Under the pieces are notes generated by a model. That model had not been told where the DNA came from and ran no database searches. It saw only the letters and a list, made by a program, of their open reading frames with translations. Positions 46,812 to 49,450 of a stretch of DNA of 64,000 bases are shown here, piece after piece (position 1 is the stretch's first letter; each line of letters begins with the position of its first letter). The stretch is from positions 868,001 through 932,000 of the forward strand of contig NZ_CAJZAH010000002.1 of NCBI RefSeq assembly GCF_914271545.1. Reading direction: 5' to 3'. Made by a program: the position numbers and the translations under genes. Origin of the DNA: Cupriavidus respiraculi. GTDB taxonomy: Bacteria; Pseudomonadota; Gammaproteobacteria; Burkholderiales; Burkholderiaceae.

Positions 46812-48047
46812 CTATGCCTGCGGCTCCGTGGCGGCCATCCAGCCTCGTACGACAGGATGGACCTTGTTCCGCCACGGATCGCCGCTGAACAACCCGTAGT
46901 GATCGCACCCCGGCACCGTCACGCGCCGTCTGCGCGCCAGCGGCAGGCCGGTGCAAAGCCCGTGCGCGGCGTGGGTCTGCCCCGCCCCGGAAATATCGTC
47001 GAGTTGTCCTTCGATCGTCAGCAGCGCGGTGCGGCGCAGGCATTCCGGCCGCACGGCCTGACCGGCGACCGACCACGTGCCCCTCGCCGGCAGCATCTGC
47101 TGGAACACCACGCGGAGCGTGTCGAGAAAGAATTCGGCCGGCATGTCGAGCACCGCGCCATATTCCGCCACCGCGCGGTCGATGCCGCGCGCGGTCTCTG
47201 CATCGCATCGGGGGCGGCGATACAGGTAGTCGGCCATCAGCTTGAACTGCCGGTCCGGATGCGCGGCGACCAGTGACGGATATTGCAGGAAACCGGGATA
47301 CACCCTGCGCCCCGCGCCCGCATAGCCGGCCGGCACGGTACCGATGGCGCTGGCGTCCAGCCACGGCAGCCACATGCTGACCGCCATGCGGTTCAAAGCG
47401 GTTGGCGACAGCCGTGCGTCGACGGGGCCGCCGACCAGCGTGAGGCTGCGTGCCTCCTCCTCGCCGGCGTTCGCCAATCGCGAAACCGCCGCCAGGGCCG
47501 GCACGGTGGCCTGGCAAACGGCAATGACATCGAGCCTGGCGGCGCCAAGCTCGCGCATGAAGCGCTCCAGCAGCAGCACGAAGTCGTCGAGGCCAAACCG
47601 GCCGGCCGACACCGGGACGTCCCGGGCATCCATCCAGTCGGTGAGATAGACGTCGGTGTGCTGCAGCAGAGCCAGCACGGTGTCGCGCAGCAGTACGGCG
47701 CGGTGGCCCGCCAGCGGCGCGCACAGCAGTACACGCGGGCTGTCGGCGCCGACGACGGCCGGATCGCGCCGGAAGGCGAGCAGCTTGCAGAACGGCGTGT
47801 CGATGGCGACGGTCTGTTCCACCGCGACCGACTTTCCTTCCACCGCGACGCCGTGGATATCGAAGCCCGGCACGCCCAGCGCCTCCATGCCCTTCTGAAA
47901 CCACTGGTAATACTGCTCGAACTGCTGCCGTCTGCTCAGCAGCGAAAACGGATAGGGGGCGACCGCCCACGCCGCGTCGGCCGCCTGACCCCAGGCGGCA
48001 AAAGGATTGAACGTGGCGAGGTGGTTTGCGCGCGTGCCATGCCGCAT
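46812..48047 (-). CDS. phaZ: Intracellular polyhydroxybutyrate depolymerase
   Basis: 411 residues. Degrades stored PHB granules. The nucleophile elbow reads VCQATVP near residue 179 with Cys in place of the lipase Ser, as in PhaZ1 of Ralstonia eutropha. Asp is in EGQLDDISGAGQT near 350 and His in GCDHYGLFSGDPWR near 385. GGAGAGCCT precedes the ATG at 48047; an in-frame ATG 36 bp upstream lacks one. The neighbours are not PHB genes. Confidence 0.9.
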   Translation of the reverse strand: MRHGTRANHLATFNPFAAWGQAADAAWAVAPYPFSLLSRRQQFEQYYQWFQKGMEALGVPGFDIHGVAVEGKSVAVEQTVAIDTPFCKLLAFRRDPAVVGADSPRVLLCAPLAGHRAVLLRDTVLALLQHTDVYLTDWMDARDVPVSAGRFGLDDFVLLLERFMRELGAARLDVIAVCQATVPALAAVSRLANAGEEEARSLTLVGGPVDARLSPTALNRMAVSMWLPWLDASAIGTVPAGYAGAGRRVYPGFLQYPSLVAAHPDRQFKLMADYLYRRPRCDAETARGIDRAVAEYGAVLDMPAEFFLDTLRVVFQQMLPARGTWSVAGQAVRPECLRRTALLTIEGQLDDISGAGQTHAAHGLCTGLPLARRRRVTVPGCDHYGLFSGDPWRNKVHPVVRGWMAATEPQA

Positions 48048-48148
48048 AGGCTCTCCATGGGACGGCCGCGGACGCGGCTCCAATCCGCATTATGGATACC
48101 GGGGCGCGAGCGACCAAGCTTTGGGACTGGCGGAACAGGCCGTCGACA

Positions 48149-48164
48149 CTGTACATTCATACAG
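48149..48164 (+). promoter_or_regulatory. LexA (SOS) box
   Basis: CTGTACATTCATACAG has the full CTGT-N8-ACAG form of the gamma/beta-proteobacterial LexA site, with an AT-rich centre. It ends 29 bp before the ATG of the radical SAM gene, where a repressor would cover the promoter. Confidence 0.75.
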
Positions 48165-48193
48165 TACCAGCAGCCATTCCCGGACAGGCAAAG

Positions 48194-49279
48194 ATGTCGT
48201 CACTAATTCCCAAGTTTCACAAGGGCAGAGGCGCCCTGACCAGTTCGGAGTCCCGTTTCGAGGCCTGGTCGCGCGAAGCCGACGACGGGGCGTTGTCAGA
48301 ACTCGAGGAGCTCCATGGCGCCCGCGCCGCACCGAAGACTACGCTGGTGCTGGAAGACGCGCGGACGATCATCACCCGCAATCAGTCGCCCGATGTTCCC
48401 TTCGACCAATCGATCAACGCGTACCGCGGTTGCGAACATGGCTGCTCCTACTGCTTCGCGCGGCCCACGCATGCCTATCTCGGCCTCTCTCCCGGGCTCG
48501 ACTTCGAAACGAGGCTGTTCGCCAAGCCCAACGCCGCGCAGCTGCTCGCGCGGGAGCTGGGAAGAAAGTCGTATGTGCCCAGCGTCATTGCGATCGGCAC
48601 CAATACCGACCCGTACCAGCCCGTCGAACGCAAGCTTTGCATCACCAGGGAGATACTGGCCACGCTGGAGCGCTTCCAGCATCCGGTGGCGATCACCACC
48701 AAGTCCGCGCTGGTGACCCGGGATATCGACATCCTCGAAAGGATGGCGGCCAAAGGGCTCGCGCGGGTGTTCATGTCGGTGACAACGCTGGATGCCGACA
48801 TCGCGCGGAATATGGAACCCCGGGCCAGCACGCCCACGCGGCGGCTCGAAGCCATCCGGAAGCTGGCGGATGCGGGCATTCCCACGGGGGTGATCTTTGC
48901 CCCCGTCATCCCCGCGCTGACCGACTACGAACTCGAGAACATTCTGAAAGCGGCGTCGCAGGCCGGAGCGTCTTCGGCGGCCTACGTGCTGCTGCGGCTG
49001 CCACTGGAGGTACGCGACATTTTCGCGGAATGGCTGGAGCAACACTACCCGGGCCGCAAGAAGCACGTGTTGAGCGTGATCGAGAACATGCGTGACGGCA
49101 AACTCTACGACGCGCAATTCGGCACCCGCATGCGCGGGACCGGCATCTTCGCCGAACTGATCAGCCAGCGCTTCCGGCTCGCTTGCCAGAAATTCGGGCT
49201 CAACGCGGAACGGCCGCCGCTGCGCACGGATCTGTTCCGGCGCCCCGGGGAGGACAGTGGGCAAGGCGTGCTGTTCTAG
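48194..49279 (+). CDS. PA0069-family radical SAM protein (spore-photoproduct-lyase-like)
   Basis: 361 residues. Radical SAM cluster CEHGCSYC near residues 80-87, then IGTNTDPYQPVERKL near 137 and a TIM-barrel remainder with TRRLEAIRKLADAGIPTGV near 215. The family is related to spore photoproduct lyase and its reaction is unproven. The ATG at 48194 was chosen over one at 48092 because the LexA box lies between and because the family starts SxIPKFHKGRGA. SOS control suggests a part in DNA damage repair or its response. It is single. Confidence 0.87.
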   Translation: MSSLIPKFHKGRGALTSSESRFEAWSREADDGALSELEELHGARAAPKTTLVLEDARTIITRNQSPDVPFDQSINAYRGCEHGCSYCFARPTHAYLGLSPGLDFETRLFAKPNAAQLLARELGRKSYVPSVIAIGTNTDPYQPVERKLCITREILATLERFQHPVAITTKSALVTRDIDILERMAAKGLARVFMSVTTLDADIARNMEPRASTPTRRLEAIRKLADAGIPTGVIFAPVIPALTDYELENILKAASQAGASSAAYVLLRLPLEVRDIFAEWLEQHYPGRKKHVLSVIENMRDGKLYDAQFGTRMRGTGIFAELISQRFRLACQKFGLNAERPPLRTDLFRRPGEDSGQGVLF

Positions 49280-49450
49280 CGACCGCCATGCCCTCCCGCA
49301 GCCATCACGTCGCCGCGCCTATCGACCACCCCGCGGTCGAGCAGCACCCGCAGGCCCATCGGTTCGCCGAACTGCGGGCGATAGGCCGTCGCACGAAAGG
49401 TCCTGGCGCGTAGCCACAGGAAAGACGCCACGGCCGCCCGCGGTGCGCCG

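What the first reader, a model, noticed from the sequence alone, without database searches (positions are those of the whole stretch)
48149..49279. LexA box before a spore-photoproduct-lyase-like radical SAM gene
CTGTACATTCATACAG has the full CTGT-N8-ACAG form, 29 bp before the start. From memory, the Pseudomonas aeruginosa homologue PA0069 is also in the LexA regulon. A conserved SOS link across two classes suggests an uncharacterised DNA- or nucleotide-repair enzyme.
Basis: partly seen in the sequence, partly recalled or inferred. Interest (0 to 1): 0.7.

Follow-up and report, generated by a model that had tools for sequence, protein, structure and literature searches.

The report
SOS-controlled radical-SAM enzyme with clamp-like tail
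This gene makes an iron-sulfur enzyme that bacteria probably switch on when their DNA is damaged, and the enzyme family ends in a short tag resembling those that hook repair proteins onto the DNA-copying ring; the damage control was already known in part, while I found no mention of the tag.

Summary
CTGTACATTCATACAG (48149-48164) lies 29 bp before a 361-aa PA0069-family radical SAM gene. It scores 25.5 bits; the window's next best site scores 5.4. Similar boxes precede lexA, recA, imuA and dnaE2 in this genome.

The link recurs: CTGT box in 30 of 30 Pseudomonadaceae loci examined; GTTC-N7-GTTC in 67 of 80 named, mostly alphaproteobacterial loci (0.35 expected), CTGT box in 4 more; exact GAAC-N4-GTTC in 2 of 4 actinobacterial relatives. 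But the box is missing in 14 of 30 genus loci and 49 of 58 class-sample loci. SOS control of 'splB' is already in print (PMC3323433, PMC8565304).

Not found in print: the family ends in Q-x-x-L-[F/L] behind a variable linker (193 of 202 distinct proteins, commonest letters QLSLF; 0 of 612 control ORFs after removing three kin), like the beta-clamp-binding motif. A second SOS-boxed radical SAM family, TIGR03916, shares it (43 of 46). The window's own tail, QGVLF, misses the strict consensus at position 2.

Best reading: an SOS-induced DNA-repair enzyme tethered to the sliding clamp. Substrate, LexA binding and clamp binding are untested; no structure could be predicted.

The parts
48149..48164 (+). 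LexA (SOS) box CTGTACATTCATACAG
   Evidence: 25.5 bits, next best in window 5.4
48194..49279 (+). PA0069-family radical SAM protein, 361 aa
   Evidence: NF033668 512.7 bits (cut-off 360); PF04055 72.6 bits
48431..48454 (+). C80-x3-C84-x2-C87 cluster motif of radical SAM enzymes
   Evidence: invariant in 42 of 42 aligned homologues
49262..49276 (+). C-terminal QGVLF, candidate beta-clamp-binding motif (family form Q-x-x-L-[F/L], commonest letters QLSLF)
   Evidence: strict consensus Q-phi-x-[L/M]-[F/L] not met at position 2 in this protein

Best explanation
The gene is repressed by LexA and switched on by DNA damage. Its product is a stand-alone radical SAM enzyme: a [4Fe-4S] cluster bound by C80/C84/C87 splits SAM and makes a 5'-deoxyadenosyl radical, which attacks a damaged base or crosslink in DNA and so reverses or remodels the lesion without cutting the strand. 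A flexible C-terminal tail ending in Q-x-x-L-F docks the enzyme in the hydrophobic pocket of the beta sliding clamp, placing it at stalled forks or gaps where the SOS response is active. Shown here: the box, its recurrence before homologues with three kinds of LexA-type box, the radical SAM cluster motif, and conservation of the tail. Inferred: LexA binding, clamp binding, DNA as substrate, direct reversal. My guess at the lesion is an intrastrand or interstrand crosslink or another replication-blocking adduct.
For: LexA: box and matrix score; same-genome boxes before lexA (228.5 bits), recA, imuA and, as best family hits of partial ORFs, an error-prone DnaE2, a PcrA/UvrD-like and a Rad3-like helicase; box of 15 bits or more in 30 of 30 Pseudomonadaceae loci examined, 0 of 30 with one elsewhere in the locus; GTTC-N7-GTTC in 67 of 80 named loci against 0.0044 expected per locus, CTGT box in 4 others; exact GAAC-N4-GTTC upstream in 2 of 4 Rv2578c-family loci, a near match in a third, none in the fourth. 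A search of the fetched loci with 12 proteins from this genome's SOS loci, several of them partial, found no SOS neighbour. Tail: relaxed motif in 193 of 202 distinct proteins, strict published form in 110, 156 if Met at position 2 and W or I at the end are allowed; of 615 mechanically picked control ORFs 3 match, two of them TIGR03916 proteins and one a truncated second copy of this family; the linker before it runs from 5 to 23 residues while Q and L are invariant in 42 of 42. MutS of the same genome carries QLDLF. The motif is described in PMC9690074, PMC13254535 and PMC4549789 (passages). Archaeal parallel: SplB-like genes beside NreB; NreA needs its PCNA-binding motif for mitomycin C repair (PMC4929162).
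Against: The window protein's own tail QGVLF has Gly where the consensus wants an aliphatic residue; 26 of 30 loci of the genus sample have Gly there and 0 of 30 meet the strict form. CTGT box absent in 14 of 30 genus loci and 49 of 58 class-sample loci; other LexA motifs were not sought there beyond GTTC-N7-GTTC. No invariant cysteine outside the cluster, so an SPL-type hydrogen-donor cysteine (recalled) seems lacking. Transposases carry the same tail, so it marks clamp use, not repair as such. No sigma-70-type promoter found at the box. No binding, induction or activity data; structure prediction never ran.
Confidence: 0.68

Rival explanations
1. It is a true spore photoproduct lyase or photoreactivation enzyme for UV thymine lesions, as the 2012 paper suggested for splB.
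For: Weak matches to SPL models (TIGR04070 25 bits, PF20903 23.3 bits); PMC3323433 proposes it.
Against: Below the cut-offs (400 and 27 bits); no invariant cysteine beyond the three of the cluster. Spore photoproduct is described as found exclusively in UV-irradiated spores (PMC4929162). 14 SPL-like ORFs printed lack the tail, but all are below the TIGR03886 cut-off, so true SPL tails were not examined.
Confidence: 0.12
2. LexA-controlled radical SAM enzyme that acts on nucleotides, RNA or a protein rather than on DNA; the tail is an unrelated C-terminal motif.
For: Radical SAM enzymes act on many substrates (established knowledge); no substrate is shown here.
Against: The tail matches the clamp motif in alpha-, beta- and gammaproteobacterial and actinobacterial members and in a second SOS-boxed radical SAM family.
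Confidence: 0.15
3. The box is a chance palindrome in this genome.
For: CTGT-N8-ACAG alone is common by chance; 14 of 30 genus loci lack it.
Against: Score, and recurrence in lineages with different LexA-type boxes; all nine genus loci of 60% identity or more have it.
Confidence: 0.03

Closest known systems
PA0069 family radical SAM protein (NF033668)
   Same: 512.7 bits over the full model; LexA-type box in 30 of 30 Pseudomonadaceae loci examined
   Different: It is a member. The model is a 'hypoth_equivalog' whose description names no function; I found no paper that mentions the tail
Rv2578c family radical SAM protein (NF038135)
   Same: 229.6 bits; four sampled actinobacterial members (all over the cut-off) also end in QLTLL, QESLF, QLRLL, QEPLF
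   Different: The window protein is below that family's cut-off of 430; in the four members the tail lies beyond the modelled part
Spore photoproduct lyase (TIGR04070, PF20903)
   Same: Distant match; a radical SAM enzyme that repairs DNA
   Different: Cut-offs not met; no invariant fourth cysteine
TIGR03916 rSAM_link_UDG (repair radical SAM, COG4277-type)
   Same: Also SOS-boxed (38 of 46 loci at 15 bits or more) and also ends in a clamp-type motif (43 of 46)
   Different: Different family, 21% identity in alignment A2; weak HhH match; its name links it to a uracil-DNA glycosylase
Archaeal SplB-like / NreA-NreB proteins (PMC4929162)
   Same: SplB-like radical SAM gene linked to a sliding-clamp-binding repair protein
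   Different: There the clamp motif is described on NreA/NreB, separate proteins; here it is on the enzyme itself

Membership tests
PA0069 family radical SAM (NF033668) | Score over curated cut-off 360 | tested here: met
   512.7 bits, positions 1-348 of 348
Radical SAM superfamily | CX3CX2C cluster motif and PF04055 | tested here: met
   C80/C84/C87 invariant in 42 of 42; 72.6 bits
Radical SAM superfamily | SAM cleavage by a [4Fe-4S] cluster | not testable with these tools
   needs biochemistry
Spore photoproduct lyase | Score over TIGR04070/PF20903 cut-offs | tested here: not met
   25 of 400 and 23.3 of 27 bits
Spore photoproduct lyase | Conserved hydrogen-donor cysteine besides the cluster (recalled) | tested here: inconclusive
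   no other invariant Cys; the best other column has Cys in 28 of 42 and Pro in this protein. The equivalent position was not aligned to a real SPL
LexA regulon | LexA box in the promoter region like those of the same genome's lexA/recA | tested here: met
   25.5 bits, 29 bp before start
LexA regulon | LexA binding and damage induction | not testable with these tools
   no assay
Beta-clamp-binding proteins | QL[S/D]LF or Q-phi-x-[L/M]-[F/L] motif, often C-terminal | tested here: inconclusive
   QGVLF in this protein keeps Q, L, F but not phi; family 110 of 202 strict, 193 of 202 relaxed
Beta-clamp-binding proteins | Binding to DnaN | not testable with these tools
   no complex prediction or assay
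Rv2578c family | Score over cut-off 430 | tested here: not met
   229.6 bits

The most novel reading that the evidence does not exclude
PA0069/Rv2578c enzymes and TIGR03916 proteins form a widespread class of SOS-induced radical SAM repair enzymes that work on the sliding clamp, removing replication-blocking lesions by direct radical chemistry at stalled forks; archaea built the same link through PCNA-binding Nre proteins.
Probability: 0.4. Interest if true: 0.85.

Novelty: new variant of a known kind. Interest (0 to 1): 0.6.

Why it matters
If true, a widespread enzyme family of unknown function in proteobacteria and actinobacteria gains a place of action (the clamp) and a testable partner, and the SOS response gains a radical-based repair arm. 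The tail gives a cheap decisive test (peptide binding to DnaN, tail removal) for a family whose substrate is unknown.

Tried and rejected
Spore photoproduct lyase as identity: rejected on cut-offs. Solved relatives: only weak SPL matches by single sequence (best E 0.03) and no clear relative by profile. Neighbours as a clue: 12 proteins from this genome's SOS loci, several partial, against loci L030-L242 and L310-L316 (flanks 0.1-2.5 kb) gave only the TIGR03916 loci themselves and one partial Ada-like match in L215; uvrA and complete dnaE2 were not among the queries. Anti-phage defence: no PADLOC match. Sigma-70 promoter scan of 48000-49450: none. Phage records: 11 weak matches, none covering 80%.

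Literature, open-access library only: 'PA0069' + LexA 0 papers, 'Rv2578c' + LexA 0; 'PA0069' 1, 'Rv2578c' 2; 'spore photoproduct lyase' + LexA + SOS 11; splB + SOS + radical SAM 2; LexA regulon set 10; 'sliding clamp' + 'radical SAM' 9, seen as a listing only, none about this by title or abstract start; 'clamp' + 'photoproduct lyase' 5, 4 listed, two opened: PMC4929162 is relevant, PMC3765255 shows no 'clamp' in its main text; 'clamp-binding motif' or QLSLF 40, three opened, two of them searched for photolyase and radical SAM with 0 occurrences. 'I found no mention of the tail' rests on these searches. LexA regulation of PA0069 and Rv2578c, and the LexA boxes of alphaproteobacteria and actinobacteria, are recalled.

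Proteins without the tail under both patterns: L058 (split by insertion), L075, L130, L134, L197, L198, L204. Rows dropped: two Pseudomonadaceae matches without a fetched full locus (G239, G253); in the class sample the own genome and G091 (cut by contig end) and all matches below cut-off; in the TIGR03916 count ten weak partial matches (L172-L178, L287-L289). Other relatives fetched (read): Gemmatirosa ends QLSLGI, Acetoanaerobium EQLSFF, Sphingomonas (PA0069 family) QGELF; Paenibacillus, Halopiger and the Bacteroides mobile pair B show no such end; in Subdoligranulum the frame met an early stop and its end was not seen.

Full report
What was checked. The 361-aa product is a full-length PA0069-family radical SAM protein (512.7 bits, cut-off 360). 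It matches SPL models only below their cut-offs.

The box against chance. The bare pattern CTGT-N8-ACAG is not rare, and in the whole genome 31 sites stand against 19 for the reversed pattern. This site has the AT-rich core of the likely real sites. Scored with 16 other boxes of the genome it gets 25.5 bits, within their range (17.7-27.7); the next best site in 64 kb gets 5.4. Those 16 were picked by eye among pattern matches, so the matrix is partly circular. Genes behind them by family search: lexA (228.5 bits; two boxes), recA (box 231 bp upstream), imuA, a TIGR03916 radical SAM protein, and, as best hits of ORFs cut by the locus end, an error-prone DnaE2, a PcrA/UvrD-like and a Rad3-like helicase.

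Own genus. 30 of 30 genomes have a match, 28 over the cut-off. 16 of 30 loci have a box of 15 bits or more (all 16 at 25.5 or more), 14 do not; one of the 14, L059, is a fragment behind an insertion and cannot be judged. All nine loci of 60% identity or more, the window's included, have the box; of the 21 others 7 do. In 23 of 30 loci the gene follows an Lrp-type regulator gene (best hit Lrp, 209 bits, under its cut-off of 233) on the same strand. In 10 boxless loci it starts 6-42 bp behind that gene; in three more (L048, L052, L053) the gap is 89-108 bp with the starts I chose. The 10 same-strand loci with a box have gaps of 52-132 bp. So part of the genus seems to have lost the promoter region and LexA control with it; no tree was built to prove loss. 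The tail is still there in those loci.

Wider. In Pseudomonadaceae (family of G191, named by me from an OprF match) 32 of 59 genomes have the family over cut-off. I examined 30 of these: all carry a box of at least 18.7 bits that begins 30-38 bp before the chosen start, and none has one elsewhere in the locus. In a sample of the class with few genomes per family, 9 of 58 have the CTGT box; these 58 are the 60 genomes over cut-off less the own genome and one gene cut by a contig end, and one of them, L080, is also in the Pseudomonadaceae count. Aeromonas caviae has a box (26.3 bits) and ends QLRLF. In four actinobacterial loci over the Rv2578c cut-off an exact GAAC-N4-GTTC stands upstream in two and a near match in a third. 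Boxes of three kinds before relatives of one gene suggest selection for SOS control rather than mere shared ancestry of the DNA; that they are the LexA boxes of their classes is recalled.

Prior knowledge. PMC3323433 (section 7 and passages read; [quoted passage not shown] It says the trait is not observed in gammaproteobacteria; the Pseudomonadaceae result differs, though that paper dealt with species with several chromosomes. That its splB is this family is my inference through COG1533, the class named in PMC8565304 (passages; [quoted passage not shown] PMC3765255 (passages) links SplB-like proteins to ImuB-C domains. PMC12924846 (passages) calls a DNA-repair link of an Rv2578c-family protein speculative.

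The tail. In the alignment of 42 homologues 67 columns are invariant; two of them are Q357 and L360 at the end of a 361-residue protein, behind a linker of 5-23 residues. Of 202 distinct complete proteins 193 have Q-x-x-[LM]-[FLWI] within three residues of the end, 182 of them exactly at the end; the commonest letters give QLSLF. The strict published form fits 110, and 156 if Met is allowed at position 2 and W or I at the end. Of 615 other ORFs of the loci, picked mechanically and not all real genes, 3 match: two TIGR03916 proteins and a truncated second copy of this family, leaving 0 of 612. Beta-clamp-binding proteins are described with QL[S/D]LF, C-terminal (PMC9690074, passages), or Q-phi-x-[L/M]-[F/L] (PMC13254535, passages); transposases have it at their C-terminus (PMC4549789, passages). 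MutS of this genome has QLDLF. Against it: the window protein has QGVLF, and 26 of 30 genus loci have Gly at position 2.

A second family. TIGR03916 in this genome has a box 9 bp before its start and ends EQLSLL. Of 46 loci from three searches (ten weak partial matches left out) 43 have the tail and 38 a box of 15 bits or more, five more 13.6-14.4. Two distinct radical SAM families thus share the same build.

Archaea. PMC4929162 (section 5 read) reports SplB-like genes beside NreB in a number of archaea; Haloferax NreA mutants are mitomycin C sensitive, and so are those lacking only the PCNA-binding motif. The authors speculate about crosslink repair by the SplB-like proteins. This fits a clamp-linked role.

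Limits. No structure could be predicted, no binding or activity is shown, and the substrate is a guess.

Noticed in passing
L006 / L171 (G000:C1, around 779933-781144): TIGR03916 repair radical SAM gene right behind a 27-bit LexA box; protein ends EQLSLL. Same tail in 43 of 46 loci.
   Followed up: yes
L015, L016, L017, L029 (own genome): Four similar copies of an unknown 87-aa protein, each 15-17 bp behind a LexA-type box; the L015 copy was run against NCBIfam, Pfam and PHROGs without a match.
   Followed up: partly
L007, L010, L014 (own genome): Three further unknown small proteins (120-132 aa) beside LexA-type boxes; only that of L014 has a PHROGs match, of unknown function. L007 has two boxes 19 bp apart.
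   Followed up: partly
L258 (G029) and L259 (G012): The radical SAM gene is interrupted by stretches with transposase-like ORFs (by eye) in two genus members.
   Followed up: partly
L262 (G017:C28) and G017:C34:703900-704160: Two divergent types of this gene lie side by side, the second lacking its 5' part; a match to that missing part lies on another contig. It looks like a resident copy broken by rearrangement next to another type.
   Followed up: no
L316 (Sphingomonas parapaucimobilis plasmid): The homologue has two GTTC-N7-GTTC sites upstream and lies near a convergent gene annotated dnaE.
   Followed up: no
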